DNA of 64,000 nt, from contig JAZBQD010000030.1 of NCBI GenBank assembly GCA_036583965.1, forward strand, positions 86,969,300 to 87,033,299, read 5' to 3'. The position numbers and the translations under genes were made by a program. Source of the stretch: Prunella strophiata. Its lineage: Eukaryota > Chordata > Aves > Passeriformes > Prunellidae. The notes under the pieces were generated by a model. The model did no database searches and was not told the DNA's origin. It saw only the letters and a program-made list of their open reading frames with translations. This document shows positions 34,701 to 59,883 of this stretch, piece after piece (positions within the stretch are counted from its first letter, which is position 1; every line of letters begins with the position of its first letter).

Positions 34701-35647
34701 GCTTGAAATGTGAGGCTGGGGGGATCAGGTCTGCCCCATCCATCCTGTGGGATCCAAACACTCAGCAGGGGCTCTGGCACCTAGGGAGAAGCCCAGAGCT
34801 ACAATAGACATCAGAGGGGTCCTGGGGGAGTACAGGCTACAGTGAGAGCCCTTCATACATCTCTGGGCGATGTGACAGCTCTCCTTGAGTGCAGAAATAA
34901 TTATAAAATTCACCTTAAGTAAAGCTGCTACTGCCTGGAAAATGTTCCTGATACGTCAGAACAATATCACATAAAACATCAGCAGCAACTGTATGTACCC
35001 ATACTCTCTGATTTACATCTTTCCCTAATCAAGTTTTATTGCTAGGAAGCCTGTTGATAATGGAAAACAAACACTCTGGATGAAAATGAAGAGAGTATGT
35101 TTTGCTACTTTTTTTCTCCCTTGTTTACCAATTCACGTTAGGTTCTGAGTAAACTGTTATTCTTTTCTAAGGTGAATGCCAGCTATTCTAAATTTCATCA
35201 GTCATGTAGAAAATTACATTCGATAATGTAAAAAATACATAAAACTTCTGACTGATACCTTGTGGCTTCCTGGACACTTGGACTTTGCCAGGAAAAGGGC
35301 TGTGAGCCAGTTGGTATCCAGCTCATGGAGATAACAGCCACATGTCTGGGATTATTGCTAACACAAGAATTTTACCTGCAGACAGCTCTGCTGACTATTA
35401 GCAAAGTCGAGTTTTCAGTCCCTGTGCATAGGACTTTATTCAGATATTTAAATACAGCAGACAGAGCCTACAACTTTAAAAACATGTAAAAATCCATATA
35501 ATAACACCATAGGAAACTACCACTTAGTGTTTGCTCTACAGCCAACCCATTACACTGTTACAATGAGCCAGATTTTCTTAAAATTTATGATTGGCTTCTC
35601 AGAAGCAAAGCACTTCAGTATTGGTTTTTTTGGTTTTTGGTGGGTTG
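31702..35647. other. non-coding unique sequence, no gene seen
   Basis: Unique sequence. A frame of 122 codons at 32057-32425 is rich in Cys, Ser and Phe, typical of a chance frame. Around 34200-34350 there is an AATAAA (about 34303) in a context faintly like an LTR 3' part, but no TG...CA boundaries or target duplication could be found. Confidence 0.5.
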
Positions 35648-35662
35648 TTTTTTTTTTTTTTT
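35648..35662. repeat. poly(T) run of 15
   Basis: T run preceded by a T/G-rich stretch from 35623. Simple sequence. Confidence 0.85.
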
Positions 35663-35870
35663 AATACACAAGCTTTCAAAAAATCAGCTGTGTATTTTGT
35701 TTTTCTTATGGTATCATCCATAGGCTCTGCTTGAGGTTGCTGTACACAATACAAACAGAAACAAATCAAATCAGAGACGATCAAATCCAGACAGAGAGAA
35801 ATGAGAAATCAGGAATGAGAAGCTGTCTGTACCTTGCAGAATTTATACTCTCAGCAGGTGAGGTAGATAG

Positions 35871-35895
35871 AAGAGAGAGAAAGAGAGAGAGAGAG
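35871..35895 (+). repeat. (GA)n dinucleotide microsatellite
   Basis: About 25 bp of AG repeats with one interruption (AAGAGAGAGA twice, then GAGAG). Confidence 0.9.
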
Positions 35896-38800
35896 TAGTG
35901 CTGTAGTGGGGAAATCCATGTAATGATGGAGGAGCAGTGGCACAGGGAGATGAATTGACTTTGGCCAAGGTTACGTGAGAATCCTGAGCAGAGCCAGGAA
36001 ATGAGGCCAGAGCTCCCGAGACCCTCAGCCACAAGGTAGTCCTTCCCACTCTGTACATATTTCTCTTCCTCTCTTTTTAAGGCAGAAAATCTTTGGGCTG
36101 AACATCTGCAGTTCCCCAAATTCCTTCTACTGTTTGCCAGTCTGGGATTTTGAAGCCAAGCAACCCCTTCTTTATCTGGGCACACCCTCACGTGTCTGCT
36201 TGTGTTCGACAGGTTTATTTTCAGGCACTGTCCTGATGACAATAATCATGACAGTGAGCTTTTCAGAGCAGGGATGAGGGAATGGCAATTTATTTGGCTC
36301 AGTTTCTCTGCCTAAACTAGTAAACAAATATTATCATTGCAGATGTGAGTAGGAACAGGATAGTCTCCCGTTATGCAGCATGCAATTCCCCACCACAGAG
36401 ACTGCTGCCTTTGGCAGCCTGCATGATTTCTAAATTCCAATGTAAATGTCCATCACTGGGTGACAGTGAAAAGCAGCTGGTACACTGGGTGGTGGGGGAA
36501 ATGCACCATCCAGCACAGGAGGGGTATTTCCAGCTCTGTTCATCCCTGCAGCCTCTGTGCTCTGTGAGCTGCAGCCCAGGCACTGGATGAGCAGCCCATA
36601 GCAGGGCAAAGGCATCCAGTTCTGGTTGGCAAGCCAAGAGTGCCTGTGCTGTGGTGCAAATGAAAGAGGCAAGCAGCCACAGCTGGGGAGCTTGGAAGTG
36701 AGACCAGCTGAGTGAGGTTGACAGGTCTAGGGCTGTCTGGGAGCAAACCTGCACTACCACCTGATGCACAGCAGTGATGTGGGAGCAAGATGTCACCCAA
36801 CCCAAACCATCTTGTAGATGGCTTGTCAGCCTTAGCTAAGCAGTTCAGAGGGAGCAATAGTGTAATGTAATTACAGTGATTCTGGGATCAAAGCTGCATT
36901 GCACCACTGAGACATATCAGCTCATAGCCAAGAGAGCTCCAGCATGGCATGGCATGCATTGGATAGAGCAATCCCTGTCCTGCAGAAATGCATATGGATG
37001 TATGCATAGCAGATGATGCTGTGGAGCAAATCTTGCGAGTAGCATACATGCAGCCAACACAGCTCTGGATCCCAAACCATGCAGGTGGTGCAGTCATGTT
37101 GCAACATTCACTTTTGGGATAATTAAAGGACACCAAGTGTTTCAGCAACTTGCAAGTGACTGCAGACAAAGCCTTTAGGATTCATGTTACTCATCTGTTC
37201 TAAATGCAAAGGGATGGGAAGGATCAGCTCAACTAGAAAAGCAAGGCATTCTTGTGGGGCATGGGGGGAAGTTATTCTAAATAGGACTAGATAATATAGA
37301 AGAGCAGAAAAAATATGTTTACATGAAATGACAACTTACAATGATGTTAAGGAAGAAAAGAAGCTTACTTCTAAATGCCACATTAACAAACCTCTCTGAG
37401 CAGTGTTGTCTACAGGTTTGTTATTGATATTTGCAGTACAGACGATGAAGGATGTCAAAGAAAGGACATCTATTGATCCAATATTGAAAACCAGTGGAAA
37501 TGAGGATCAGTAAAAAGACCACAGTTCTTGGCTCCAATTACTTTTGGATGTCACCCATCATTGGTGTGCATGTCTGCATCCAGTGATGCCTTTGCCAACC
37601 TGTTTAAGCACTTGTGAATGGAAAAGGTACTTCACAGGGAATGCATTCAGGGTTGCCAGTAAAAGATTTGGGACAGGTGTGGTTGAACAAACTCAGCATA
37701 AAAGAATGTAATTTCTGAGGAATGTAGATGTTTGTTTGCCTCGTCATAGTGCAGGTGTGCCATTATAAAGACCTCTTGGGTTAGTAAATGTGACTACTTG
37801 GTTCTGACTTTATACATAACACTCTTGATAGAAACCTGAAATCACTGAGGCCCCAAGCCATCAGATTAAGTCCTTGCACAAAATGACAGTCAACAGGAGC
37901 AGGAAGGGCACATGACCCTGAGCTGAACAAGGTTGTGCACTTCCTTGGTGAATCACCTGAGCATCCACAGCAGTCATTCTAACTAAATCTCACACTTCAG
38001 AAGTTCACAGGCAGCCCCAGTAGACTGCAGTTAATTAATGCATTACTGTCAGCATTACTATCATTTTGACTTTTCCTGAAAAATGAGAAGATGACTTGCA
38101 CAATGATGGCTGTAGGATGGGGAACAAGGCTGGTAGCCACACACAGGAAGTTTCTGTATGCGCTCAGAGTCTACCAGTGGTCACAACTCTGCAGCCTGTT
38201 CTGTGGGGCTGGTGCACACTGCCAAACTTTCAGAATGACTCTTTCACAAATGAACTGTATGCAACTTTGCAAACACCTGCTTTGCACAGAAGGGATTATT
38301 TTGATACCAAATTTGAAGCTTCAAAAGTCAGGATGTGTCTACATAAACAGGTGTGGATGAATGCGTGTGCTTTGCATATTCTCAAAGGCAGGTGCAAGAG
38401 GAGCACATCTGCCTGCACACAGCTGGGCTACTTATTCTTAGATGTGTTCAAACCATCTCCTTTCTCTTTTCCCCTCCAAAGAAGGCTGACCAAGTCACTC
38501 AGTCAATGCTAGGTAAGTGTTTTGCTCAGTTTATTTACTATTTTACCCTCTTTTACCCCAAAACCAGCAATGGATTTACATTTTTTTTCCTTAAAGCATC
38601 CCCAAAACTAAAATAAATTTTCAGATTAATTTTCAGGTCTTTAAGGGAATAGAACTGCAGGTGTTTGTTACACATGCAAAAACGGGAAGTTGTCTGGCAA
38701 TTCTTTTGGCACCCTTAAATTTTTACTGTAAGACACAGTAAATAATGAGACAGCTGGTGAACTGTGGGAAATGTGTGGCTGACAAAACTTTGGTGCAAGA

Positions 38801-41800
38801 AAGCTGATTAAGTGATATTCACAGTGCTTCTAATCTTGACAGTGGCAGAAGCACAGCAGCAGGCTCAGCTTGGAGCATGAGCCTCCCATCAGTGGTGACA
38901 GAGCAGCCCTTTCTGGACAGATTATTGCCCTGCACTGCATGATCAACATGGATGGGGAATCTGAAAGTGACTGTTTGGTTTCCTTGGTCAGATAAACTTG
39001 CAGGGAAATTATGCTCATTTTCAATTAGATAGGTATGAAGAGTGGAGTATCATATGATGACTAGACTTATCCTTTCAGGCAAAGAAATGTCATTTTGAAA
39101 GGTGAGACAGGTTCTATTAACAAACCCCACTGAGAGAGAGGATAGAGAGGGAAAGATGGATAAATGCAGGAGAGTGCCATGCTTCAGGCCTGTGCAATAG
39201 ATTCTGCTTCCTAATAGCTTACAGTTTTGGAGTAAGATATAGTTTGAGGTCTTTAGTTCAGACTATCCAATAACATGGAGGACTAAAAAACCACATCCTG
39301 CTTTATACAGAAGGTGCAAGGAAAACTATGAAAATCCCATGGGCAATGTATGGTTTTGTTCCTGGGCTGCTTTTACTCCTGGGTAGTTTTCACTCAGTCA
39401 TTTCTCTGAAACAAGGGCAGGGTACTGTGGTTCAATTCTGCTGCTGCTGAACGCCTAACTCAGTTCACATAACACAACACTGGAACACATAATATGGTGC
39501 ACAAGAGAGGGTTCTCACAGTGTCTGAACTGGATGAAGGTGGCAGCTTTCAATCTTAGATTGGAAACTTTAGTTTTGATATGAGAACATGGCTTGAATGA
39601 GAGAAGCAGGACCTAATCCAGACAAAAGAGATTCTCACCTTTTCACCATTGTTTCTGAACACCCAAAGGTAAACTGGTGCAACCTCTTCTCTCAGTGAGC
39701 TATTACTGCAAGGGGCCAGATGGGCTCTCTTTGAACCAAAGAGAGCACAGTCTAAGTAAAAACTGAAAAGTTTACAGTGTCTCTTCAAGTGCTGGCAGGC
39801 TAGGTACATTCCCAAAAGGTATGGAAAGTAAAAAATCAGTCAAGTTTCATAATGAATGGGTTTACTAATTTAGCAGACTCTGGTTAAAGACTTTCCAGAC
39901 TAATGTAATATCTTCTCCTCGTCAAATTCTTAAATGTATATAAACAGTGATTTAGAAATAAAAAGTCTATTCAGCAAAGATGGGAAGCTACTGTGCTTCC
40001 AACCTGTAAAGGTAGGGAAAACATGGAAACCTTGTGAGAAAGGATTACCTAATAGAACCAGTGAAATCCTTGTATAGATGTGAAATAATGCTGAGTGCCT
40101 GGAGGCAAAAAAAAAGAGTGGAGGATAAATACAGGGCTATTGCAAGGCACAGACTGCCCATCTGCACCTTCATGCCACTTTTTGAATCACAACAGTGCCT
40201 TGGGGGTTAAACCAACAAATATGTCTATGTGCTTGTGAGCTCAGTTGGCATTTTAGAGCAGCTCTGCAAGCTTGCTTCCAACCCACACTCATAGATATTG
40301 GGTACTAAAGCCTGTCACATTAAATGTGTCTCTGGATGTTCTGTCCACAACGTGACCCGAAGCACTTTTCTTCAGAGTGGCTGATACATTTCAACTCAGT
40401 GCTGCAGCCCTCGGTGCCATGCTTGATTGAACAACTTGTCTCCACTATTAAAATGCAGAGAGAACTTAGACAAGCATTTAGAAGCTTTGTCATTAAATAG
40501 TTTTCTTGTCAATTGATCTATCTTGTAGGGGAAAAGACAGCTACTAGATCCATCAACTGCCAGCAAAAAAACTAGGAATAGGTCTTAGTCAATTAAATGG
40601 GCAAGTATTGCTTGACAGCTCCCTCTGGGAGACAGTTCATTTGGGGCCTGACTATTCAACAGGATTAGCAACTTCAAGCACTGGAAAACTGACCTTAACT
40701 GAAGGTGAGCTTGCATCTGCAATGTGTCTGTGGAACACCACTGAGCAAAGGAGCAGCACAAACCTCTCTCTGTTCCCCTGCTGAGGACTGTAAAATCTCT
40801 TTTTTTATTCCTTTTTTCTACCTTCAAGAGTTTCATGCAGCTTTTAAGTGGCATAATTTTTTTTTTTTTCTGAAGCCTTGGTCTTTTCCCTTTCTGTTGA
40901 GTTTTTATTATCATGCATTTTGTGACCTATGGTGTTCATCTCAAGCCCTGGTAGCCCTTGCTCCTCCCTGGGGGCCATACCTTGAACAATCAGCAGCACA
41001 TGTGGCTGGGGAGGTGCACTGAGATAGAATTGGGCACAGGCAGACAGCTCACTGAGTCAAACTCTCTCTTCTCATTAATGAATGGCCAAAAATGACCACA
41101 CAGAGTGCAAGGGGAACATGTTTACCTCTAGCTGTGTCACACATGGGCATCTCATTGAGCCATTCCCTGCCATTCCCCCGCCTGACACGAGTTTTAAGTT
41201 TTCACTGTACACTGCCTTTTTTTCCCCAGAGTCCTGCGTCTTCCAGATGTCTCAGGGCACCTCTATATCAGAAAAGCCTGGGGTGGTTGTCACAGACACA
41301 TCCCTGTCACTGTTCTACTCCTTGGGAAGCTGTTTCCATCTCCTTCAGCATTAGAAATCGTTTGCCCTGACATTTCTAATGGTTGCTGCTAGCTATGCTG
41401 CTCACAGCCCCTGCTCAGCAAAGCCTCCTGGCTTGAAACAGGAGCAAACATCCTTCACCCATTTTACAAGTAAAATTCCCTAAAAGTTTCTCCATCTCTT
41501 CACTGAGTACCAAAAACTTGCTTTCTTCATGGGATTAGCTTGTGCAGGTGTGTGCAGAAAGTGCTCAGAAAAAGCCAAGTGCTGAGCAGGACTTCTGGAT
41601 GCACAAATACTTGTAGTATTTTCAACCCTGTCATCACTTTGCAGAGCTTGCCAAATCTGTTTTGCTTCTACTGCATGAAAGTAGAGTAACTCTCTCTTCC
41701 TGCCTGAGCTATGGCCCAAATGCTCTCAATGCACAACTACACTAATTATTACACTTAGAAGTAAGGCAGCAGACAGTCAGAGACTGTACTTCAGGCAAAA

Positions 41801-42739
41801 ATCCCTGCTGAGATTCAGCCACTGCATGAGAACATAGCAAAATTTTAAATGTTCCAACTTTTTCAAAGCTACAAATTAAAGCAAAAACTCAGATGAAGAT
41901 CATGCCTTATTTAGGAGATGTTAAAGATTGATAAATCATATTTGCCACCCTTGCAATCAGTTTGAGTTTCAATTTAAATAGAACTGAATCACCCAAGCAT
42001 TTATTTCCATTACAGATAGGTGGATTCAGGCTGTAAGGTTTTCATGTCCAGATTTATTTTCCTCATGTTCTGCATCAATTCATTCTCTAGACTAATAAAA
42101 GTTGCAGAAAATAGTATTCACAGTGGATGTGCTCCAAAAAATTTGAAGCTCTGATGTCCATGAATACTACCAAATAATTTGGAAAAGTGATTTCTATGTC
42201 CTAAATTAAATCTAGATTGGTGATGAATGTTCAGTTGTCTTTCACTTAATGATGTCATCACAGATACCAAGGGACATGCTCAGCCACTAATTACAAACAT
42301 CAAGTTTATGAGGAGTCTGGGTGGAGAAATGCAATGGACACTCTGTGGAAGGAGTGTGCTCATTTTCCCATTGCATTTATAGAAAGTGATGCCAATAAAT
42401 TAAGCAAAATGCAGAATGCTTCACTGCAATCACCCTTTAATTTGTAACAATTGCAATAAATCACCTTTCAGCCAGGGTAGCATCTTTTGATGTGTTTTTA
42501 TCTCCTGCCCAGCACAGCATGGCCATGCTCCAGCAGTGGAATTCCTTCAGCAATACCTGGAAGGGAGCAGCAGCTGCCAGGTGGCTTCAGCACAAGGGAG
42601 AACTTGGCTCCCTCCCACTCTGCACCTGGGGTGCTGCCAGAGGGATTCTTCCCACCCCTAGGGGCACAGCAGACTGCCCAATATGAGAAGTTTTGCTGAA
42701 CCTCTGCTGAGGACTGCTTTTCAGAAAACCTCAGGAGGA
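35896..42739. other. non-coding unique sequence, no gene seen
   Basis: Nearly 7 kb of unique sequence. Several overlapping minus-strand frames at 36371-36857 lie on GC-richer DNA with few stops in any frame, so they carry little weight. An 11-nt T run lies near 40859. No repeat family, RNA gene or convincing exon was seen. Confidence 0.5.
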
Positions 42740-43281
42740 TTTTTTGTTTGTTTTGTTTGTTTTTGCTTTTTTTTTGTTTTTTTGTTTTGTTTGTTTGTTT
42801 GTTTGTTTGTTTGTTTGTTTGTTTGTTTGTTTGTTTGTTTGTTTGTTTGTTTGTTTGTTTGTTTGTTTGTTTGTTTGTTTGTTTGTTTGTTTGTTTGTTT
42901 GTTTGTTTGTTTGTTTGTTTGTTTGTTTGTTTGTTTGTTTGTTTGTTTGTTTGTTTGTTTGTTTGTTTGTTTGTTTGTTTGTTTGTTTGTTTGTTTGTTT
43001 GTTTGTTTGTTTGTTTGTTTGTTTGTTTGTTTGTTTGTTTGTTTGTTTGTTTGTTTGTTTGTTTGTTTGTTTGTTTGTTTGTTTGTTTGTTTGTTTGTTT
43101 GTTTGTTTGTTTGTTTGTTTGTTTGTTTGTTTGTTTGTTTGTTTGTTTGTTTGTTTGTTTGTTTGTTTGTTTGTTTGTTTGTTTGTTTGTTTGTTTGTTT
43201 GTTTGTTTGTTTGTTTGTTTGTTTGTTTGTTTGTTTGTTTGTTTGTTTGTTTGTTTGTTTGTTTGTTTGTTTGTTTGTTTG
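42740..43281 (+). repeat. very long (TTTG)n tetranucleotide microsatellite
   Basis: An impure lead of T with G (about 42740-42785, including a longer T run) passes into perfect TTTG for about 496 bp (42786-43281), near 124 uninterrupted units. No substitution is visible in the pure part. Read on the minus strand it is (CAAA)n. It keeps all six frames open and creates frames of up to 287 codons that are not genes. Confidence 0.98.
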
Positions 43282-43979
43282 GAGGAGAAGTCCCCAGAGT
43301 GAACCTGGGAGAGGCAGCACCCCACTGAGACACTGTCTGTCAAGGCCACTTCAGCCCTCAAGACCCATCTCCCAGGAGCTGCACATCCTGGTTGTTGGCA
43401 GCAGAGGACCCCCAGGGAGGCTCAGTCACAGAAACAGAAATGTTCCTGCTTCTCATTCAATGTAAAATAATTGCCTGAATCCATGTGAGGAAATCCTCTC
43501 CCCGGAGCAGCTTTGGGGATATGACAGAAGGCATGCTCCACTTCTGGCAGAGATAAAGCAATTTATCCTTCTTTTTGCTGTAGAAAGCCCTGAATTTCTT
43601 TCAAGACATGACAGTGGTGTATATTAGTACATGATGAGGAAAGAAATTGCAAGAAATTGTCTGGGGTGGTTTGCTGGACTATTTTTTTTGGACCACCGCG
43701 GGGCATTTTTATCTACAGAGTTGTGTCAGCGATTTCTGTGAGTTTATCCCCACTCTGTCGTTGTTGATGTTGGTGGTGCTGTAAATCTGCCTGTAAGGCA
43801 CTGCCTGCAAAAGCAGCATGTAAAGCAGAAATTTGTCCTTTGTATTTTGAGCAAACTAGAGGCAGAAATTACATAAGCTGGCTCCCCAGTTCTGTCAGAC
43901 AGTCAGGAGTCTGCTTCACTGGTCTCCTCCCCTTGCAAAAGTTTTGGGGTTGAGGTGGCATTTATATGCCCCATATGTA
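43282..43979. other. non-coding unique sequence, no gene seen
   Basis: GC-richer just after the repeat. A patch at 43690-43765 retains several CpGs (ACCACCGCGGGG near 43692, then isolated CpGs to 43760). No gene or repeat family was recognised. Confidence 0.5.
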
Positions 43980-44095
43980 TACACTTATATATTTGCATTG
44001 ATACAAGCATGTATGAAAATACAGATATATGCATGTATGTGTGTGTGTGCTTATATGTATGCTTCTGTGTGTACATTTATATATATACATGACAG
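43980..44095. repeat. AT/TG-rich low-complexity region
   Basis: Imperfect TATA, GTATG and GTGTGTG units over about 115 bp, including (TG)5 near 44040. Simple-repeat-like sequence. Confidence 0.75.
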
Positions 44096-45814
44096 AGGTT
44101 TCAGATGAGGGGCTCTGTATCTATAATTATCTAGACTCTTTTGGTTAAACCTATTGAACACATCTTTATTACAGAGAAAATGACTGAATGTGTATTTTAC
44201 ATCTTCTTTTCTCCTCTTTAATATCTATTTTGTTTTATTTTTGTATTTTGTTCCTTCTTTTCTTCTCTGTTTTCCCCCTCTCTGTCTAAATGTATTGGAT
44301 GATAAACAGAGTCTAAAATTGGCTTTGCAGCAATAGTTTTGTGAGGTCTACTTTGGGAGGAAAAAATCTTCTGAATAATTGTATGCAATGAAGATGCATT
44401 TGAATATACACTCTGTGTTTCTCATGAGCAATGCTCATCCCATGTCTGCAGCTTAATGTAAAGATACCACTATGCTTACATGACATGTTATAGCAGTGTG
44501 GTATGTAAGCACATATAGAAACATATACTCAGAAAGGATGATGAAAATAATATAAATATTTGTTAGCATATTTAAGATTAATTCCTACATCTCAACTCTA
44601 ACATGTTTCTGTATGGGTACATGTGCTTTGTTTCTATATGTATTAGCCAGCCTTCCTATGAGTGCATGTGTGTGGGAGGAAAGGATATGATTATGGATTT
44701 GCATAACATCCTGCGTGAATGTAGACTGAAACTGAAAACATGGAGGAAATTATATAATCTATTTTTAAAGTCTACTTTACTGCAAATGTTGCTTCATCAA
44801 GCTCTTATCATTGCTGATTAATTATGTAGAATGAATGAATATGAGTTCTAGCCTTATCTTCCATGTCTGCACTGGAGAAGAAATTTAAGCAGGGACACTC
44901 ACAAAGAGGTGTTTCAGCAGACAGTGGAGTACCATAATCTTATTTTTCTGTCCCCTGGACATTCCAGTTATGGGTGTCTCTCCTCATGCATGAGATTATT
45001 GATCTCCATGGTAGTAATGAAAGATGAAAAGGTCAACTTCTAAATGTGAACAGTAGGGACCACTCGCTACTGCAGTGGCTGATGTAGGCACTGTGCCCTT
45101 GCTGTTTGCAAAGATCTCCATTATACCAACAATATTGATCTAATGTGGGAAGATCTTGCTCTCTTGTATTTTTGTCTTCATACCACTTCTCTCCAGCACT
45201 TCCAAAATGAAATCTTTTATAGTTTTGATAGCTCCCTGCTTCCTAATTTTCTTCTTTTCCAGCATAAGAGGCACTTGTATTAAGCCACCTGAAGCACAGC
45301 TCTCAGCTGTCCTGGTGCTCTCATGATGGCTGCTGGAGGAGGTGACCCATCTGGAGGGCACCTTTCCCACCACAGCACCCCAGCCTCTCCTTGCAGCCCC
45401 AGTGGTGGCAAACAGTGCCAGCACAGGAGAGAGCCCCTATGGCTGTTCTTGTAGGTGGGCTGTGCAGATCCAGGCTGCACCCCAGGAGACAGAGGTGGGA
45501 TAGAGAGCACTGATGTAGTTTGGTGCAATCAGATGAGGGAAAAGGGGAGCAAGGATATGGGGAGTTAGGTTATTATATTTTATTATTTACAGAAAATGAA
45601 GAATGGGTACCAGGGATGAGAGCTCAACAAAAGAATCTGAGAAATCCCAGGAGTGACAGCCCCACATCTTGGGAATACAGGGACCGGGAGAACCCACCCT
45701 CATATCTGTGGTGTAACACTTACAGCTACTGCAAATACCAAGGCATTTCTAAGCTGCAGACACAGCTGCATCATATTTCAGATAAGAAACAGATAGAGTG
45801 CCTCAGTGTTGTCA
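44096..45814. other. non-coding unique sequence, no gene seen
   Basis: AT-rich to about 45130, then GC-richer with overlapping frames on the minus strand (45140-45528). No domain, repeat family or RNA was recognised. The last 300 bp lead into the CCTT repeat. Confidence 0.5.
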
Positions 45815-45977
45815 TCCTTCCTTCCTTCCTTCCTTCCTTCCTTCCTTCCTTCCTTCCTTCCTTCCTTCCTTCCTTCCTTCCTTCCTTCCTTCCTTCCTTC
45901 CTTCCTTCCTTCCTTCCTTCCTTCCTTCCTTCCTTCCTTCCTTCCTTCCTTCCTTCCTTCCTTCCTTCCTTCCTTCC
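45815..45977 (+). repeat. (CCTT)n arm of an inverted tetranucleotide repeat
   Basis: 163 bp of perfect TTCC units (about 41 copies). It is the left arm of a hairpin whose right arm begins only two bases later. On this strand it is pure pyrimidine. Confidence 0.98.
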
Positions 45978-46479
45978 AAGGAAGGAAGGAAGGAAGGAAG
46001 GAAGGAAGGAAGGAAGGAAGGAAGGAAGGAAGGAAGGAAGGAAGGAAGGAAGGAAGGAAGGAAGGAAGGAAGGAAGGAAGGAAGGAAGGAAGGAAGGAAG
46101 GAAGGAAGGAAGGAAGGAAGGAAGGAAGGAAGGAAGGAAGGAAGGAAGGAAGGAAGGAAGGAAGGAAGGAAGGAAGGAAGGAAGGAAGGAAGGAAGGAAG
46201 GAAGGAAGGAAGGAAGGAAGGAAGGAAGGAAGGAAGGAAGGAAGGAAGGAAGGAAGGAAGGAAGGAAGGAAGGAAGGAAGGAAGGAAGGAAGGAAGGAAG
46301 GAAGGAAGGAAGGAAGGAAGGAAGGAAGGAAGGAAGGAAGGAAGGAAGGAAGGAAGGAAGGAAGGAAGGAAGGAAGGAAGGAAGGAAGGAAGGAAGGAAG
46401 GAAGGAAGGAAGGAAGGAAGGAAGGAAGGAAGGAAGGAAGGAAGGAAGGAAGGAAGGAAGGAAGGAAGGAAGGAAGGAA
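45978..46479 (+). repeat. (GGAA)n arm of an inverted tetranucleotide repeat
   Basis: 502 bp of perfect AAGG units (about 125 copies), pure purine on this strand. AA at 45978-45979 separates it from the complementary CCTT arm, so the two arms can form a stem of up to 163 bp with a 2-nt loop and many slipped registers. GGAA is the core recognised by ETS-family transcription factors. Confidence 0.98.
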
Positions 46480-48659
46480 TTGAATAAAAAAAATCCTAAC
46501 TTCTTTTCATGTTTTCTTGAACTCCCGTGTTTCTTTTTTAAAATTCTTTTTTTTAGCAGTATCACATAGTTGTAGGCAAGAAAACTGATCTGCAATTTTC
46601 TGGTTTTTGAGGGTTTAGTGCAGCTGGATTTCTGTCAAGGAAGATATTAGCCTGAACTTATTTCTGTTCAGCAAGGGGACGTATTAAGGCATGTGAGAAG
46701 GATAGGAAAGTTTGATGCTGGTATTCACAATGATTCAAGTTCAAGCAAGCAAACCCAAAAAGGCATTGTAGAGGAGACTCTCAATAATAACCAGAAGTTG
46801 TGGATTAGATGTTTAATACAGGAGGTAAGAGGCACAGAAATCATTTGGAAGGTGTGAAGAAAACTAGTCACTATGGTGCAATGGAATACATCAACAAACA
46901 AGCCAACCAATGTGAGTTTCTGAGAAAGTTGGGGAACTCGAAAAGAAACCACAATTGCAGCATGTCTGTCTACCTTCCCCACTACTCTTCATCCCTGAAA
47001 TAGAAAACAGAATAGAGGAAGAAGTAGGCAGTGTGCCTTTGGAAATCCTGCTTGTTCAGGCTCTGCTCAAGTCCCTGGGAAGAGATAAAACTAGCAAGAA
47101 AACAGAAGAAGTGAAGGGCAGCCAAAGGGGCATCAGATAAGATGAGTTCTGTGCTTAAGAGGAAGCAGACCCCATTTTAAAGAGAGAATTGAAATAAATT
47201 GTTGTGAAGTGGGAATTATGCAGAACTATATTTAAACATTGTTTTATGTAAACTAAAATGAAGATGGAGTACTGGCAATTAGGAAGCATCGACAAAACTT
47301 TAGCTATTGATAAAAAAGTCTGTGAGACAACATTTGGTAAATTAGCTGCCCTGACTAAATTAATCCATAATATTGAAGGGATTAATATTGAATTGCATAT
47401 AGTTTCTCATGCCTCAGAAAAATGGAAAAATACATTAAGATGGGGAAACAATATAAGGAAAGACTCAGCTGATTTAAGACATCCATAAGCAGGGGAGTAT
47501 CTACAAAGAATGGAGGCATCAAGTGTCCCATTATAATTGCTAGGAACTCAGGGCTTTGTTCAGTTGCTTACACATAGGCATGGCCTGATGGCCCCAGGGG
47601 ACAGCAGACATGCACTGGGGACTAACAGTTGTATGACAGGAACTACAGGAAACCCACATCTCTCTGGAGCATAGGACTGGAGGCCAGACAGGAGAGGGCA
47701 AGGCCTTGAGCATCTCAAAATGAACCAGGCACCTCTGGTTCACAGCCAAATTAGGAGCTGGGAGCAGGAGACAGGTCCAACTTAAGGCTCCAAATGCCCA
47801 TCACAAAAATTTAGCTAGATGTCAGATGTCCTACTACATTCCCCTAGAGAAAAACAGTTCAGCATAGCTATTGGCATTGAAACATCACACCTCAAGATTA
47901 TGTCAGCTGATCTAAGGTATGGGGACCTAAGGCCCTTGAGTGAAAGATGCAGCAGCTGGGCTGTGTGATACGTGGTTACCTTCACTATCCTGGTATCACT
48001 TCAGACCCATCCTTTAGAGAGGTTTATGAAGGAGCAAGCTCCACCTTCCCAGCTAAAGGAGAGAGAGATGCATGGAGGTGCAATCCCTCTTGGCCCAAAG
48101 CAGACCTCTAAAATAAAAGAGATTCCCTTTCTTAAGTGTTTGTTGTTCCTGAAAGAGTGATTTTTCTTAGCATTTAGAGCAACAAAGCCAGGTTCCTGAT
48201 GGTGCATGTGAAAAGAAAGCAGATCTTTTTCTTCCCTCAGGGATTTGGAAGTGATTTCTCCTGAAGATGCTAGGAGGGCCCATTATATATGGCAAAATCA
48301 AAAAAGAACAGCAACATACCTAATTTTCATCTGTGGTGTGTTGACAACCATGCTGCAAAGTGAGCAGAGGCCTTGACTCCCTTCCCTGCAGAGCTGGATC
48401 TCCTACAGAGCTGGATGTCTGCCCCAGGTCTACCTTGTTCTGGCACTCAGGATCCCATGGGGAGAGGCACCCACACCCATGGGGCTCTGCATGGGTCCCT
48501 GGTGAGGATGGGACACCCAGAGTGAAGTGTGAGTCACAGTGATGGGCCTGACCAAGGAAATGAGTCAATCACTCACCTTCACCCATGTCAGGGCCTCATT
48601 AGGTACAGGTAGTTTTATTTAAAAACAAACTTCCTTCAGCATGTAAATGCATACCAGTT
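46480..48659. other. non-coding unique sequence, no gene seen
   Basis: AT-rich sequence, with T runs near 46533 and 46546. A 76-codon plus-strand frame at 47258-47488 has a balanced, helix-like composition, but no start context, neighbour exon or family could be recognised. Confidence 0.5.
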
Positions 48660-51600
48660 TAACACCATGGCACAGCAGCCCTTGTCCATAGCTTCCTCCA
48701 TTTGCTGCCTACTTGGGGTGAAATGATTCCCAGATTCTTCTGGGTGAGAGTTGCAGGAAGTGTGCCCACAACAACACAGTTGGTTTGGGCAATGAGCTGG
48801 AAAAATGGGGAGTGATTTTTCAGGGGGAGTGTTGAGAATACTTCCTGCTGACAGTTTTGTGCCCTGGTGAAATATGGCATCACATCTCTACAACTGCAAC
48901 TGCTGAAGAGGGCAAGTAAAATGCCAAAGGAAGGGAGGGGATTCCTACCACACATATATATATATATCTCATGCAATTGGAAGAGATTCAATTTGTAGAG
49001 ATTAAGGTGAACATTAGAGCAGAAATTCCATAAGGATGACATCTATGAAATTACAGAGAGCAATTTGGGAAACTGTGCTTCTTAAGCATTAAGGGGAACA
49101 AGAGTGCATTGTAAGGCACAGGATCTCTCATAGTTAATAGCTGTATTACAGTGATGTAGTGTTCATGCTATAGTTTAACATGAATCACAATGCTGACTGA
49201 TGCATAAATACCATATTATTTTATATAGGCTATATATGCACCATGTCTATGACATTATTTTTATCTGCCCCTATAATGCAAAGTTTAGAACTTCCCTGAG
49301 CTAGTCCATAAGAGTTATGTACAATACTGGGCAAAACCCTTATGAAGTTTAATTTGACCAGTGCTTAAGGAATGTCCTAATTAATTACTTTTTTTTTGCA
49401 TTAGGAAGTAAATAAACTTCAGAAGTTTCCCTTGACAGTAAGCACAAGTTATCTTCAAATGGTTTTGGACTATAATGCAGTACTTGTAAATGAAACTTGG
49501 GAGCTCCAGTAGTTATCTGGCAAGTGACACAGACTAGGGTTAAGAATGTGACCATCCACTATGAATAGTTCCCACTTACATCTTTAGTATGTCTATTTAT
49601 AGAACTACTTATTTTATGCTTAATGCATTTAGTGGTGGGATGGCTGGAATTTGTTCCTGGGCTCACTTTCCTCAAAGAAAGCAGCACAGACTGCTTTTTG
49701 CTCGGGGTTTGACAAGAGATGGCATTTAACATTTATCTTGTTTACACCTAAAAATGAGCAAAGAGCAAGCCTGGTATGTATAGATCTAAGCATTTGCCTG
49801 TCCATTTGCCAGATGAACATTCAATCACAGAAGCTGCACAAACAAATTAGACATACAGCTATACAAATCTAGTTTGAAAAATTGGGCCATGCGTGGGTGT
49901 GTGCATCTAAATATTTTACAAGCTGAACAATTACCCTGGAGTATTTTAGGTTAGAGATATATAAATTAGATGTCCATTGAAATTTACATCTAAGCAAAGA
50001 TTCAAAGATGAATATGCATAAAATCTTTCAATTATCCAGTTTTCAGGCATTATGGGTGTTCTTCCTTCAGAACAGTGATGGGCAGAGCTCCATGCTTATG
50101 CGATTCAGTTACGTGACACAGAAGTAACAATAAGGTTACTACCAGAATTCAGGTTAAGAAAAAATATTTCCAGTAATCTATTCCATTGCTGCAGTATAGC
50201 AGATGTTAACAGTGATGAAAGCACTCAAAAAAGTGAACCAATGGAGTGGCTGAGAGAGGGGATGCCCAGTGCTACCACTCAGCCCCAGTGGGGAAGGCTC
50301 ACTGACAGTTCAGGAGTTTGAGGGGAGTTTGCTGTCTCTCCACAGCATTACTTCAGTTCAGCTCACAGGTCTCCCTGCAATGCCTGGAGCCTAGTGATGT
50401 GGGGCTTCCTGTGGATGGGCAGTCTGGAGCCTTGCCTTTATATCTCAAACCTCCTGGGAGCAGGAAGCAGTGTCTGCTCCATGGTGTCATCTACATCCCT
50501 GCATGGCTGGGCTTTGTCCCCTCTCAATGGCTTCATCTCCTCCTTGATGAGGGCACAGCTCCAGCAAGAAGAGTGATGAGTCCTAACCCTCCTGAAGTTA
50601 TCCTACCACACCATTTTCTTTTCTGAATCCAGGACCTTCTTTTTATGTTTCATGTTGAAATTACAGAATCTAGCTACTGCCCCATGAAGTGGTCTGTGAA
50701 AGGCAAGCCTGTGGCTAAGTCATGAGCAGAATTTGGGAATGGATTTGGAAACAGGCACTGGCTTAGACTAAAGGACATTGTTTGTATTCCAGCAGTTTAT
50801 TCTCACTGTTCAAGGGTGCTCCCAGGATTTCCCAGGTGACTAACATTACCTCCTGGCACCACAGGCTTCCCTACTGTACTCAGTCATACTACAAGGCTAG
50901 TGTCCCATATTCAATTAAGTTAATTATTACTTGTATTGAAACACTCCCTTTTAATTAATGGGAGAGTTGATGATCTCATATGTTTATCTGTTAGCAGTTT
51001 TGTTACTTTTTAATAACTAGAACACTAGAATGACACAAACCCACTGCATCAAATGATGGTGGCTGATTGTCACCTCAGATGGTAGAGAGGGCTGTGGTTT
51101 GGGGAAAACCCTGCTATTCAGGGCCACGTTCTTCTATGTGGTGTTTGGGGTACACCATCAGCTAACAACCACTCTGAGAGGTCCAGCAAGTCTCTTTGAA
51201 GGACAGGCAATGCAAGGGGAAAAAGAAAGTCAACAACAATAACGTAGCAGCCTTTTACATGACACACCTACAAAGTGAGCAGTGCTCATTCCCCGAGAGG
51301 CTGGCAGATTACCACAGTTGCAGCTGACTGAGCTGTCAAAAATTATTATTTTATCTTCTTTTCTTCAATGGAGATCTTTTTATTTTGTCTGCTGACTTGA
51401 AAAAGCACCCCAGAAATATATTTCCATTTCAGTTTCTGCTCATCAGGATGGGGATACAAGTGAGGGGAAAGGAAAGAAAAGAAAATACAAATAACTCCCC
51501 ACATGTATTTCCTGGTAGTGTCTCTTGAACTGGTACATGTCAAGTCCAGAAATACAGAAGACAGAGCATACCAGAATTACCCACAAATTATCACCTTTAT

Positions 51601-52708
51601 CACTTTTTCAGCAGCATTTCCAACATGACATTTCTCTGCCAGAATGTTCCTGAACCACCAGGACTGGGAAAACCTGTGGGAAAAGTAAAGAAAAGCCCAA
51701 GCTGCCTTCTTTGGCCTACAGCAGTCCCTATGGACAGCAGCCTATGTGTGTGCCTCTCCTCCCCCTTCCCCTGCCCTGAAATACTGAGGGCTGGTGCCCA
51801 GGGGTCTGGAGGGACCCACTGAATGGGCACTGCAGAGAAGGCTCAGCCTTCTGGGTGTGGGACAAATGCAGACTGTCCAGAGAAGATCCCTCTTGGTACA
51901 GATTTCAGAAAGTATGTTTTCTTCATCAGTAAACAAACAATGAGTCATTGGCTGTCACATGGGAGAAAATGAGATTACAAAGGATGTATAAGTAAATAAA
52001 TTAGTTCCCGTTAGTCATGGCAACAGCTCAGTGTTTCCACCCAAGTGTTTTATTCTAATTCATCTTTCTGTCTTTATTTTTGTAATATTGTTACCCTTTT
52101 ACTTAGGGGAATGAAATTCTAATAAGATTCTCTTGTAAATACAGTTTTAAAAAATGCAGTTCTTGTATTAGACTACTTTTGAGGACACAGTCTTTATTTT
52201 TTTTCACATTTATGTTCAGGGATGGAGCTGTGGGGGAAGAAATGAAGCTGTACCCTTCCCCTGCCCTGATAGTGCTGCAGGTCTTGCATGTGGCCATTTG
52301 TCACTCAACCTGCAAAAGGAGCTTTTACCATACAGTAAAACTGTTGCTCAGTTCCCTGCTCCAAATGTGGATATATTATACTCTATCTGTTTTACAGATG
52401 CCATCCAATAGAGTTCTGGAGGTTTGCTGACCCCTGTCCCCAGGCATCAATGCCAGAATATTGTGATCCAAAGAACTGTGTCTCTCTGAGGAAATGTCTA
52501 TTTTAAAACATGCTTCTGCTCCACTCCTTTCCTTTACATCTGTATCTCAGAGTAGTTGATAAAAAACTTTTTTGTGCTTACCCCAGATCCTGCAGAGATG
52601 AAAATCTTGCAGAAGAGCTGTGTTTTCATCTGTGGTTTTAATTCTTTTTTTTCAAAGACTTTGTTTTGCTATAGATGCTAAATAGTCTACAAAGCATATG
52701 TTTTAAAT
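48660..52708. other. non-coding unique sequence, no gene seen
   Basis: Unique sequence with a short (TA)n run at about 48953-48967. Overlapping frames of 60-127 codons show no domain. No RNA or transposon was recognised. Confidence 0.5.
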
Positions 52709-55700
52709 ATGTGTATTTATTACAATTCCTATAATCTCAGTCCATGCCAAAAGCATGCCCTCCAAAGTAGAAGAAGCTGGAAATTGTCAGAGTCATATCT
52801 TGATTTAAATGTCACAGTTCTCATCTCTAGGCAAAAGTGGTTGTTACTGTTTTTACTAAAATATGAAAAATACTTCAGAAATTATTCCAGAGAACTGAAC
52901 TATTTAAGTATTACCGTTATTCACAGATTTCCCTAAAACTATTTTCCAATTGGTTTTGTCCCTTATTGCAAAACGTAGGAGAAATTTAGGGCGATGGTAC
53001 CTTTTCTGGTACATTCTTCAATATGTGCAACAAAGAAAATCACTTCCTTTAAAATGATAAGCAAAAAGCATCTCTCTCCCTCTCTGAGTACAACTGTTTT
53101 TATACCTGCAGATGCTGTTAAATATATCTGTTCTAATTGTAAAATTCACTTCAAGCTATAAAGGTGATGGCATTTTCTTGGGGCCACTGCTCAGGGGTGA
53201 CTCAGGAGCCAAGCAGCAGGACTACAGAAGTAAGCTCACAGCCAGCATTAGCAATATAAATCTCTCCATACTCTAAATGAATCAGTTTGACTTGGTTGGA
53301 ATTTTTAGGTCAGTGAACCAAAAATGTACCTGGATCCTTAGTTCCCCTGTATTTCCTGTATTTTCAATGACAATACTTCATTGAGACTATTGTCTTTAAT
53401 CACCCAGCAGAGGTGTTGAGTGAGGAGAGGAGGGAAAGCAGTGTGGAAGGGACTTTAGCCCCTGTATGCACCAACAGGTGCTGCAAGGTTTGTGAATGCA
53501 TCAGGCAGACAGCCTGGAGCCATCCCTGCTGTTTATACAAGGACTCTTCTTATTCCTGTCTTGCAAACATGTTTCAGCTGCAATAAATTGAAAATTCCCT
53601 GACAAATTCTCAAGGCTCTCCAAACTTAGAGGCAATGTTAGTAAAAATTTAAAATAGGGGACTTCACAGATTATTCATGCCATCAACTTAAAAGGCTGTG
53701 GGATTTGTTGCAGCACAGCAGAGAATTTTTTCATTATTGGTAGTAGCAATAATCATAAGCTGAGGCCTGTGATTCAGTTTATTGTGGTCTTAATTTATGA
53801 TGGAAGACTTTATATTTAAGAACAAAAGTGAGAGGATAGCAAAATTTTGTTAAAGGTAATTAAGCCCACAGATGCAGGGCTGAAGGCTGCTTTAAGGAGT
53901 GAACAAAACCCCAAACAAATCTATATGGGTGATAAATTTAATCCTCTTTCTTTCCAGCAGGTTAACTTTAAAGTATCTTTTTGTTTAATTGACACTCTTA
54001 ATGAAACAATTTAAATACTACAAAACTATGTTTGGTTCTGCTTATTGCTGTTGTCAAGGGCATTTCTACATGAAACCTGAACAAGAACAGGTCAGGTGGA
54101 GCAATGTGTGGGTGAAAGCACTTCCTCTACACAGAGCATAGCAAGACAGATTGTACGTAAACAAGTACTGATTCATGGTCTTGTCTTTGAATGAAAGAGA
54201 CAAATTTGTTTCTAAATTCTCCATCTTCACTTCTGACTGGAGAACTGATTCTCTGATGCTGGACTGAATAAATCACAGCTCGTGTTCTGTTATTTTGATT
54301 TTTGATTTTATTTAGAGAGGTTTTTTTTCTTTCAATAATGGAAAGTAAATATATGAGTCTCATAGAGAAAAAATAAATTAATTTCTTTCAAGGCAATCCA
54401 TCTGATTTGAGTTGTTCATTTAACAGAGGAAAGTGAGGTTGAAAACCAACTCTCCAAAGGCTAGCTCTGACAGACCAAGAAGGTAAGAATTTACCCATCT
54501 CAACCTGTCAAGAGCTGATGCTATTACTCCCTACACTGCTGCATAACAAATGTGTAAGGTTAACAGTTAAAGGATGGATATTTTCATTCATTTAGATTAT
54601 GGGTAAAGTATGAAATTGAGGGCTGGGTTTATTTTTTTCAATACTTTTGAAACGTCAAAAGCACTTGAAGTAAAATAATTTTGATTCTTATTTTATGAAT
54701 ATAAAAATATTTGTATTTTCTTGTTGAGACAGTGGGTGGGAGCAGTGGAATCAGGAGTTTTGTATTGAATTTCATCTCTGATAATTAATTCCTTTTTGAT
54801 CAAAGGCAAGTCTCCTAACAGCTGCACGCTGTAATTTCTTTGTCCTAAATGTAGCTGTATATAAAGTATACCTGCCTTTTGGGAGATTTCAGCAATGAAT
54901 AGAACTGTATATGTTGAAAGTCCTACATAATGCCACTATAGCTGATATTTAGGTTGATGCTTTACAGCCTGGGTGCCCTAAACACTTTTCTCATGACCTC
55001 ATTATTCTCTTTACTGTTTATGTGTGGCCTGTTCAGGTAGAACCCATTAGGCAGTGATAAGGAAAGAGGGAGAGATGTTTATAGTCAAGTCACCAAAAAG
55101 TCCAGAGTTTTTTTATATATTTGAAATACTTGCAGCCATATTTGAAGGGGGAATGGGGAAGATGGAGATTGGAGTTTGAGGGCTTTGTTTGGGTGTTTCT
55201 AAGACTCTGGTATCTGCAAACATTTGGAATGATTTCATGGTTCCCAAGTGTTGCCTAGCTCAAGATGATACATAATATGTGAATGTATCATCTATTTTCT
55301 GAGATTCTTGGGAAGTCACAATATAGACAAAGGTTACCACCAGAGTCACACTGGAAATGTAAAAACTTGTGCACCCCAGAGTATTTATTTAGGTAAGAAA
55401 AGTTTATGCAGCTCATGGAAGAATTACTCTGCAAGGAAATTCAATTTCAGTAGCTTTTTTATCTCATTTCCTCAGTTCCTCTGTCATCCCCCTGAGCTCA
55501 ACCCTTTCTTTAGAAGCCCTGAGTGAGCAGGGAAAAATGTGTTGAATTTAATGGTTGGCTTGGGAAGTCTTCCCCAAAGGACTGTTTGTCCATTATAACT
55601 GGCTGTCTGCTGCACTTATGTTGTTTTACTGGCTATAAGGACACGAGTACTTACATTTGCTCTCTTTCTCAAAATATTGTGGTTTGGCTGAGTGGTTTAG

Positions 55701-55802
55701 ACTAAACTGAAGAGATATATCAGTACTAGAGAGGATGGTTTATTTTGGTCGTTTTACCTGTGTGTTTCCAAACTCCATCTGCACTGTGAGTATCAGGCTG
55801 TG
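52709..55802. other. non-coding unique sequence, no gene seen
   Basis: AT-rich unique sequence, few frames above 60 codons. No supported feature. Confidence 0.55.
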
Positions 55803-56420
55803 TGTGGGAGCGGCGCTGCGGCGGGCGGATGTGCAGGAGCCCTGATCACCATTCCTACACACACAGACACAGAGAAGGGTTTTCCCCAAATGCTCCACTC
55901 TGTTGTAGAGGGGAATTTGGAGATGGGAGCAAGGCCAGGGACTCTGCACAGAAAGCTTGGTGTGCTGGGGGAAAGGCAGATCTCACTAGGGACTTAGTAC
56001 CTAGTCCCTCACAAGCACTGTGCAATTTAGCTGTAGGCAAGGCAGGGTTGACCCCACTGTGACTTGCATTAATCACACCACCCAGACTGCAGTCAAGGTC
56101 AGCCAGGGCTGTCCTTGCAGCCACCCTGGCCTAACCATGGTACACAATGGCTGAAGCCACTCACTGCCCCTTCAGCTTGGCTGCAGTGCCCTGCTGTTCC
56201 TTGAGGACACCTTTTCAGCTGCACTGCCTGGCTGTGCCGCTGATCTGCTGATCTGCGCCTGAGGAAACCTGCTTGCACTCTGGCTGCACCCAGTCGGGCA
56301 GCCAGCTCGCTCCTTCTCTGGGAAACACTGCGCTTAAAAGACTGGCAAAGCAGCCCTGAGCACGCTCAAGTCACGTGCAGAAGGGATTTGGATTACAGCT
56401 CTCCAGCTGCATGTGCAGCC
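55803..56420. promoter_or_regulatory. small GC/CpG-richer block, possible regulatory element
   Basis: Five CpGs occur within 16 bp (55811-55827), by far the densest cluster in the window. A second GC-richer part (56180-56420) holds more CpGs, a CACGTG E-box near 56375 and a TTAAAAG TATA-like motif near 56333. It is too short and weak for a CpG island. It could be a promoter, an enhancer or the relic of a GC-rich repeat. Confidence 0.25.
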
Positions 56421-59400
56421 CAAGCATTCTGGCCTTGTGCAAATGCAGTGGACTTTGCCTATTGAACTGTTTTTTTCCTCTTCAAGAGGACTTTCTTATG
56501 AGACAGTTGTTCAGAAATTAATTTGTGCTGCAATGGTGATTGTATTGTTATTGCTCCCATGTGGCTATGGATATAGATTATATTTTACAGGAAATCATGA
56601 AGAAAAGACTATTGCTTTGAGCAAGGCTGTAATTTAAAGTTATCCAGAGAACATGACCTGTGCTTGTATTCTCACCTCTATAGCACTGCAAAAAACACCA
56701 GCTCTAGTCCAGGCAATGTTCTGACCTAGGTTTTCAACATGACCATGTTTATTCTAATTGATAGGTTTAACATTTTAGACCTGGTTCATCAGCCTAAAGT
56801 ATGAATTAGCAAGCACTTAAACCTGAGGCAAAATTTTCCTGTGTATGAATAAGAGATGCAGGAGTCCAATATATGTACTCAAGGTAGAAATACATTCTCT
56901 CTTTTCCTACCTGGGATGCATGAGATGTGTCTTCAGTTCATGGTTTTATTTTACAGAAGGTATATTTTATTGCCTCAGACTTCATGAAAATGAAAAAATC
57001 AGTGATCACAGTTCAATTAGCCTAAATAGTATCCCTTCATCATTTGTAACAGGAGACAAAATAACCTAAAAATATGCCCATGTAAATTACTTCTTGCATA
57101 CATATTATTTCTTTTATGTCATTCTAGTGTGAACATCCCCCTTGAACACTTTCCTGCATTGGACATACTGATTACACTGTTCATTTAGCAAGCAGAAAAT
57201 GAATGGAAGAGCTATTAAATACACAAATCATTTGGATCAGAATATATTCATTTCCTTGAAAAATGAAGGTTGGGAAGAGCATGTAGGAATAGCAGCAAAC
57301 ACATAAATTTAGAAGATGCAGTTCAGTCTGGGAGCTGAAAGTGGAGGTGATGATCCTGTGTCTGGCTATGCCTGGGCTGGCAGCAGGCACGGGGCAGGGT
57401 GAGCCAGGGCTGCTGCTCTCTGGGGTCAGGGGTGTAACTGGGAGCAAAAGAAACCGGGTGGAGGGGATAGGATTACTGCCTGCTGTCTCTCCCAACCAGA
57501 ATGAGGGTCAACCATGTTACACTGATTTATTTGTAGGAGAGGAGTTAGAGGAATTAATTTACTAATCCTACACCCAGCCTCTCTCTTCCCTGACTGCAGT
57601 CTTCCACGATTTTCCCAATATAGAGTCTGTCTTCCCCTCTGCAGCTGTTTGTTATTTGTAATTCTTAATAACAAAATGCTATTTACTAAGACTTGGAGAC
57701 TTTTATTTCTTCATCAAATCAACTTCCACCTAATGTATATAAAGGATTTGTTCATAATACATAAAAATCTGTAAACTAAAGCACATGTAGTAGATTTTTT
57801 TCTTGTCTAAATACCTCTATCAATTTAATCTGAAGAAATTAGACACCTGCTCTAACAGTAAATGAATGTTCATGAAAGTTAGGGAGAATTAGAAGGCAGA
57901 TTCTTCAATCACTTACAAATCATGAACACATACTTTTTGAGTAGCCCTGAACTAGCTTGCAGGAGTAGTTTTTAGGTGGCTAAAGGTGGCTCACTGCACT
58001 CCTGTAGTTGTTCAGGAGAGACAATGTGGGGGCAGAGGCTCTACATGACATTGCTTCAGCTTCCTGATTGTATGACTGCAACTTAATGAGCTGCTTAGGG
58101 CTTGACCCAATGAATGGTTTAAGTGACTAAAAAAGGGCTTATGTATTATTAAGATTCCTGTACTCAACATTGCAAATCCATACCTTCCTGTTTGATTTCG
58201 TAAGTCTCTCAATGCTGCCAGCTCTGCACCTGCACGTGTCTGGGACCATCCTGATACTCTTGTCATGTCTGCAACCCAAAAATACATCACCTATTTGCCT
58301 TAAGGGCCTGCCACAGTAGACTTGGCACACAACCATTGGACAGATCCATCACAGGAGGCAGCAGTGGTTATGGAGCAGCTTTGGCTATGAATATGCTCCA
58401 CCTTTGTTTTTGAAGGTAAAGACAAATTCATGGCGCAGGAAAAAGGGTGTGTAGTGCCACTGCGTAATATGTCAGGTACTTACATGGAAAAGAGGGAGTC
58501 AGTAAAATGCAGAGATCTCTATCTCCTAGTCAGCAAAGCAAGTTCAGGATCCCTTCATCATGGCCAGAGGAACAGGGGTGGGACTTCTAAGAGATGCTCA
58601 TGCACCATGTTTCTTGGTGCCAGGTTGCTTTCTGCAGAAGGTGCTGGCAGAGAATGTTCATATTCTGATCCCTTTGCCCCAAGGATTTTGTTTCACAAAT
58701 CCCAGGGAGTCAAATAACCACTTTGTGACCCCAAAAATGGGGATCCCACCCATCTCTCCCACCCCTGCCACCACAGAGCTTCTCTCTGTATCTCACAGTG
58801 ACACCAGCACTCACATGTTGGCTTTGTACTTGAGTCACCTCAGTTCAACAACCTGGAAGAAAACAAACAACAGCAAATCCTACATAGCTTTATGCCACAC
58901 TAGTGAGTCAAAGGGAGGGTCCAGTCAGGGCCAGAGCTGATATAAGCAGGATGCAAAACTGGGAAAGGAGGAAGGGCACATGTTGCCTCTCTCCTTTGTC
59001 CTTAGCTGAACACTTTGGTGCCTGTATCCACAGGCTCCATGTGTACTCTGCAAAGGAACACACTGATGAGCTCTAGGTTTGGGTCCTGCTTGCTCATAGT
59101 AACCACTAATGTTGGTGAAAATATTAGCAAAGATCTGAGAAAGAAAACCAGTAAAAATTAATTAGAAAAAGATTAAATAATATAAGAATAGACACCTGTA
59201 CAAACAGTCACAGCTCAAATGGTGGCTCCTGGGGACATTTGTATTAGATACATGCTCTCCTAGCTTTGAATAGATGTTTTCTCTCAGAGCATAAACATTT
59301 ATGATTTAATCTAGGAATTAGCCTTAGAGACACCACAAATGTCTAGGGTAATGTTAACCTTTGTCTCAGATAATCAATTGCTGTTGGTCAGCAAATAATG

Positions 59401-59883
59401 AATCTGATTTAAGGAGTTCTTAGGTGACACTGGTCAACCCCACACACTTCTGCACTGCTGCAGGCAAAGAACTGAGACCAAAACACAGTTCTAAATGCAA
59501 CAGGTTGCTTCATCCTTGGCACTAGCTCAGCTGATGTATGTAGGCAGCAGATCAAGCTTACCAAGACCCTTCTGCCCACCCTGCCCTTTAGAAGGCAAGG
59601 AAATGCCAGATGAGGGCTCATAAGTAGACCACAATTTGAGCTAGGGATACATAAAACCAATACAGCATTCATCTAACTGAGAGAAAATAATTGGTAGATA
59701 CGTTCCTCAAGCTGCTTTATTCTGCTTACATGGGATGTTACATTGATTGAAGACATAAGCAGGAAGTACCTGAGAAATGACAACTGAAAAGTGAATTTGC
59801 TATATGTCTTAATTTTACATTATAGCAAAAAAGACATACAGGCCTATTTGAGATTGAAACCCTTTTTTAATATGCGTATTATT
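56421..59883. other. non-coding sequence; one small frame with a hydrophobic segment
   Basis: A 74-codon plus-strand frame (56413-56637) begins at the edge of the GC-richer block and has one hydrophobic stretch of about 18 residues near its middle (codons 38-55), like a membrane segment. It has no family I recognise and may be chance. The rest, to 59883, is unique sequence without a supported feature. Confidence 0.4.

What the first reader, a model, noticed from the sequence alone, without database searches (positions are those of the whole stretch)
45815..46479. Giant inverted tetranucleotide repeat: 163 bp CCTT, AA junction, 500 bp GGAA
Two perfectly pure microsatellite arms of opposite strand sense meet with only two unpaired bases. 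The stem can reach 163 bp, and the right arm allows over 80 slipped registers. The strand switches from all-pyrimidine to all-purine, which also permits triplex (H-DNA) forms. An ordinary microsatellite grows in one sense only, so the switch needs an inversion, template switching at a fork, or an assembly/read fold-back artefact.
Basis: partly seen in the sequence, partly recalled or inferred. Interest (0 to 1): 0.75.

Follow-up and report, generated by a model that had tools for sequence, protein, structure and literature searches.

The report
Two opposite-sense microsatellites meeting head-on
A stretch of about 665 letters repeats CCTT and then switches abruptly to the opposite-strand version GGAA, making a near-perfect giant hairpin; it is probably an extreme case of a known kind of paired microsatellite with no sign of a function, although only raw sequencing reads can show that it is not an assembly error.

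Summary
A pure TCCT array (45815-45977, 163 bp) abuts a pure AAGG array (45978-46479, 502 bp). The arms are exact reverse complements over 163 bp around AA, which is in phase with the right array; 85 registers pair the whole left arm. Outside this locus the longest perfect inverted repeat found (loop up to 30) has 14-bp arms. This is a complementary-motif compound microsatellite (AAGG-AAGG couple, minus conformation), a class described by Kofler et al. 2008, who ascribe it to inversion-type recombination and judge it rare. Most likely one arm is an inverted or template-switched copy of the other, followed by slippage. Re-inverting 45816-45977 restores one uninterrupted 664-bp GGAA array, but such a phase fit has a 1-in-4 chance per arm, so it is weak support. 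Inside a pure arm there is no self-complementarity to prime a fold-back. The 1-kb flanks are not mirrored, which argues against a plain fold-back read. An artefact cannot be excluded without reads: A/G-rich arrays are a documented weak point of HiFi data. The host genome could not be searched. No function was found, in partial scans. New, extreme member of a known kind; modest interest.

The parts
45815..45977 (+). Left arm: pure period-4 array (TCCT)40.75, all pyrimidine on the + strand; whole CCTT units 45816-45975.
45978..46479 (+). Right arm: pure period-4 array (AAGG)125.5, all purine on the + strand; whole GGAA units 45980-46479.
45815..46142 (.). Palindrome in the centred register: 163-bp perfect arms around AA (45978-45979).
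   Evidence: exact reverse complement; DNA fold -213.9 kcal/mol; RNA fold -346.6 (+) and -345.3 (-) kcal/mol
45976..45981 (+). Sense switch CC|AAGG; the two arrays abut with no base outside either array.
44815..45814 (.). Left flank, not repeated in the right flank or elsewhere in the window.
   Evidence: blastn against the whole window, E up to 0.1, low-complexity masking on: only the self-match
46480..47479 (.). Right flank, not repeated in the left flank or elsewhere in the window.
   Evidence: blastn against the whole window, E up to 0.1, low-complexity masking on: only the self-match

Best explanation
A real complementary-motif compound microsatellite in apparently non-coding DNA, probably of a bird or other sauropsid. 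One original GGAA array gained an opposite-sense arm when part of it, at its left edge, was inverted or copied backwards by a template switch. Slippage then kept both arms pure and changed their lengths. The product is able to form a hairpin and probably triplex, is probably unstable, and has no evolved function. Shown: anatomy, purity, phase fit, absence of self-complementarity within an arm, non-mirrored flanks. Inferred: the inversion or template-switch event, the slippage, the instability, the lack of function, the host group.
For: Perfect complementarity and purity of both arms. Re-inverting 45816-45977 gives one uninterrupted 664-bp GGAA array, and re-inverting 45978-46479 gives one uninterrupted CCTT array; chance 1/4 each, about 1/16 for both. 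The pair meets three of the four marks that Kofler et al. 2008 (PMC2644718, passages) give for couples made by inversion-type recombination: minus conformation, equal motif length, mutually complementary motifs. Unrelated flanks speak against a fold-back of a longer segment.
Against: Only one of the two phase fits is needed, and at least one happens by chance 44% of the time. The left-arm fit requires base 45815 to belong to the flank; with it the arm misses by one base. An inversion within an array should usually leave a remnant of the original sense at the outer edge, and none is seen. No 1- to 4-mer of either arm has its reverse complement in the same arm, so the switch had no microhomology inside a pure arm. 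No relative, allele or read was seen.
Confidence: 0.5

Rival explanations
1. Assembly or read artefact: a fold-back or chimeric read inside an array, or a gap closed end to end, joined a CCTT end to a GGAA end.
For: HiFi reads drop out at long A/G- or T/C-rich sequence: a >250-bp AAAGG array and at least four cases on human chromosome X (passages of PMC7545148); GA-rich gaps in CHM13 (passages of PMC9186530). No reads were available here.
Against: The flanks are not mirrored; there are no N; an overlap misjoin would give a single-sense array, so a chimeric junction plus a second error, or an end-to-end closure, is needed (inference).
Confidence: 0.23
2. Two abutting seeds of opposite sense (an ancestral sequence such as TTCCAAGG) grew independently by slippage, possibly helped by the hairpin they form.
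For: TTCCAAGG is common: about 29,700 expected in 1.1 Gb at the window's GC (genome size assumed); it occurs once elsewhere in the window, at 1868. No homology-free jump is needed.
Against: A seed with two units on each side is rare (0.4 expected). The double phase fit would be a 1-in-16 coincidence. In 106 loci with a (GGAA) array of 9 or more whole units, 0 have an opposite-sense run of 9 or more bases within 150 bp, though these are viral and prokaryotic contigs, not vertebrate.
Confidence: 0.17
3. Two separate arrays of opposite sense were brought together by deletion of the spacer between them.
For: Would give a junction without spacer and unrelated flanks, as seen.
Against: Needs two same-motif arrays close together beforehand, and a deletion that ends in or at the edge of both; no other GGAA or CCTT array of 10 or more units is in the window.
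Confidence: 0.1

Closest known systems
Complementary-motif compound microsatellites (SSR-couples, minus conformation), e.g. [CTG]13-[CAG]67 and [AAT]n-[ATT]n (Kofler et al. 2008, PMC2644718; passages and section 2.7 seen)
   Same: Adjacent microsatellites of mutually complementary motif and equal unit length, on opposite strands.
   Different: AAGG-AAGG is not in their ten most abundant couples for any of eight species, whole genome (Table 4) or coding sequence (Table 5); here the arms are 163 and 502 bp. The authors label AAT-AAT r/s in zebrafish and s in platypus, so the recombination label is not certain even there.
Self-complementary (AC)n/(GT)n microsatellites of the mouse Sfmbt2 miRNA cluster (PMC3212979; passages seen)
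   Same: Two complementary microsatellites that form a hairpin in RNA.
   Different: There a hairpin of about 83 nt in a repeated 296-nt unit of an intron, with annotated miRNAs; here a 163-bp stem of tetranucleotides, a single copy in the window, with no evidence of transcription looked at or available.
Palindromic (A)n/(T)n microsatellites of Fusarium mitochondrial DNA (PMC7218506; passages seen)
   Same: Microsatellite arms of opposite sense around a spacer of two to generally four bases, polymorphic in length.
   Different: Mononucleotide arms of 7-12 bases, 14 and 16 copies per mitochondrial genome, proposed by the authors to be mobile.

Membership tests
Complementary SSR-couple of the recombination type (Kofler et al. 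2008, Table 6) | minus conformation (the motifs lie on opposite strands) | tested here: met
Complementary SSR-couple of the recombination type (Kofler et al. 2008, Table 6) | equal motif length and mutually complementary motifs | tested here: met
   both period 4; exact reverse complement over 163 bp
Complementary SSR-couple of the recombination type (Kofler et al. 2008, Table 6) | overrepresentation of the couple in the genome | not testable with these tools
Plain read fold-back artefact or fold-back inversion | unique flank repeated in reverse complement on the far side | tested here: not met
   blastn of both 1-kb flanks against the window: self-matches only
miRNA hairpin from complementary microsatellites | transcription and small RNAs from the stem | not testable with these tools
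   no expression data at hand; no Rfam family at gathering score in the window

The most novel reading that the evidence does not exclude
The two arms serve as templates for each other. A nascent strand that has crossed the sense switch can fold back onto its own upstream repeats in many registers (85 for the whole left arm) and extend by copying them, so the locus grows, and is kept pure, by hairpin copying as well as slippage. That would be a self-templating class of microsatellite whose arms change length in large single steps.
Probability: 0.12. Interest if true: 0.6.

Novelty: new member of a known kind. Interest (0 to 1): 0.32.

Why it matters
If reads confirm it, this is a clean natural case of a sense switch in a homopurine microsatellite, where base composition rules out microhomology priming inside an arm. 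That would let homology-free inversion, seeded growth and hairpin copying be told apart by comparing alleles and related species, and would give a natural hairpin/H-DNA substrate. If it is an artefact, it is a recognisable error signature in A/G-rich arrays.

Tried and rejected
Gene, non-coding RNA or mobile element: not supported by what was scanned. No Rfam family at gathering score in the window. Pfam, six frames, stops read as X: no family in 46501-61499; in 20001-34999 one RVT_1 match below its curated cut-off. Three single ORFs gave no Pfam family. The stretches 1-20000, 35000-46500 (which holds the finding) and 61500-64000 were not scanned with Pfam beyond one of those ORFs (8991-9548). 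PDB sequences were compared with one frame only (46501-61497, +): one match, tyrocidine synthase, E 0.0055, judged chance. ORFs across the arrays are simple readings of the repeat and were not taken as genes.

Relatives: CCTT x4, gap 0-30, GGAA x4: 0 in viral contigs, 0 in genome contigs. 3+3 units in either order: 0 in viral contigs. Denominator: (GGAA)10 in 1 viral contig and 105 genome stretches (80 of them listed). In all 106 loci no opposite-sense run of 9 or more bases lies within 150 bp of the array; in 10 the array lies within 10 bases of an end of the fetched stretch, so that side could not be judged. These collections are viral and prokaryotic, and say little about the host genome.

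Papers: nine searches listed no report of a giant CCTT/GGAA inverted pair that I recognised from titles and abstract starts; most subscription journals are not held.

Full report
Observation. 45815-46479 is two perfect period-4 arrays: TCCT, 163 bp (45815-45977), and AAGG, 502 bp (45978-46479), each with 100% matches and no indels. The reverse complement of the left arm equals 45980-46142 at 163 of 163 bases, and 85 registers of 45980-46479 pair the whole left arm. The AA at 45978-45979 is in phase with the right array, so the arrays abut with no foreign base. As single-stranded DNA 45815-46142 folds at -213.9 kcal/mol (100 shuffles: mean -85, sd 12.2); as RNA at -346.6 (+ strand) and -345.3 (- strand). 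Outside about 45775-46870 the longest perfect inverted repeat with a loop of 0-30 has 14-bp arms.

Setting. The window has 41.3% GC and no N. An RVT_1 match (E 8.4e-5, 22.8 bits, below the curated cut-off of 29.6) lies at about 23912-24325 on the + strand. The overlapping ORF 24074-24433 reads to me like a CR1-type LINE reverse transcriptase end (recalled; the ORF alone matched no Pfam family), which would suggest a bird or other sauropsid; the host was not identified. No other Pfam family was found in six frames of 20001-34999 and 46501-61499; the rest of the window, including the 11 kb left of the finding, was not scanned this way. Another pure array, TTTG, 496 bp (42786-43281), lies 2.5 kb to the left, so this window holds other long pure arrays.

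Origin: what the sequence allows. No 1- to 4-mer of either arm has its reverse complement in the same arm, and the right arm alone does not fold. A fold-back or template switch inside a pure arm therefore has no base pairing to prime it. The switch must come from a homology-free inversion or jump, from an opposite-sense stub already at the array edge, or from a join of two arrays. Re-inverting 45816-45977 gives one uninterrupted 664-bp GGAA array, and re-inverting 45978-46479 gives one uninterrupted CCTT array. Under random phases each fit has a chance of 1/4, both about 1/16, at least one 0.44. The left-arm fit requires base 45815 to be flank; with it the arm misses by one base. This favours a common origin of the arms only mildly. 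No remnant of the other sense is visible at the outer edges, which a random inversion inside an array would often leave. The seed TTCCAAGG is common (about 29,700 expected per 1.1 Gb), a 16-base seed with two units on each side is not (0.4 expected, genome size assumed).

Age. Zero interruptions in 665 bp give a 95% upper limit of 1.1 to 3.8 million years for rates of 4e-9 to 1.2e-9 per site and year (the rates are a recalled plausible range for birds). Slippage turnover resets this clock, so it dates the present units and not the junction.

Artefact. Each 1-kb flank matches only itself in the window (blastn with low-complexity masking, E up to 0.1), so this is not a plain fold-back read, which would repeat the left flank in reverse on the right. 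Overlap errors between arrays would merge same-sense sequence and keep one sense (inference). An artefact therefore needs a chimeric junction plus a second misjoin, or an end-to-end gap closure. Against that comfort: HiFi reads drop out at long A/G- or T/C-rich sequence (a >250-bp AAAGG array and at least four cases on human X, passages of PMC7545148; GA-rich gaps, passages of PMC9186530). The sequencing platform is unknown and reads were not available.

Relatives. In the viral and prokaryotic collections no inverted pair was found. Of 106 loci with a (GGAA) array (1, 105), 0 have an opposite-sense run of 9 or more bases within 150 bp; the longest whole-unit array is 116 bp, and 10 arrays lie at an end of the fetched stretch. 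Single sense is the rule in that set, but it holds no vertebrate data.

Comparison with the known. Kofler et al. 2008 (PMC2644718; passages and section 2.7) describe this class: adjacent microsatellites in minus conformation, with complementary motifs of equal length, ascribed to inversion-type illegitimate recombination, with [CTG]13-[CAG]67 as the example, and judged rare. AAGG-AAGG is not in their ten most abundant couples for any of eight species, chicken included. Complementary (AC)n/(GT)n pairs underlie the hairpins of a mouse miRNA cluster (PMC3212979; passages), and short (A)n/(T)n palindromes occur in Fusarium mitochondria (PMC7218506; passages). The present locus is a new member of a known kind, remarkable for length and purity. 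How rare such couples are in birds was not measured.

Mechanism and verdict. Best supported: a real complementary couple whose shorter arm is an inverted or backward-copied part of the GGAA array, since kept pure and resized by slippage (0.5). Rivals: artefact (0.23), independent growth of two seeds (0.17), spacer deletion between two arrays (0.1). No function is indicated; hairpin, H-DNA and instability follow from the sequence and were not tested. Interest 0.32.

Noticed in passing
42743-43281: Long TTTG array, 135 copies at 97% matches, of which 42786-43281 (496 bp) is pure; about the same length as the GGAA arm 2.5 kb away.
   Followed up: no
3318-3449: 132-bp all-pyrimidine run, TTCTT-type array, with a pure 85-bp TTTTC core at 3353-3437.
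   Followed up: no
23912-24433: Weak RVT_1 match (E 8.4e-5, below the curated cut-off) overlapping an ORF that resembles a CR1-type LINE end (recalled), the only hint at the host group.
   Followed up: partly
31658-31705: About two copies of a 22-base unit in tandem (2.2 copies, 96% matches).
   Followed up: no
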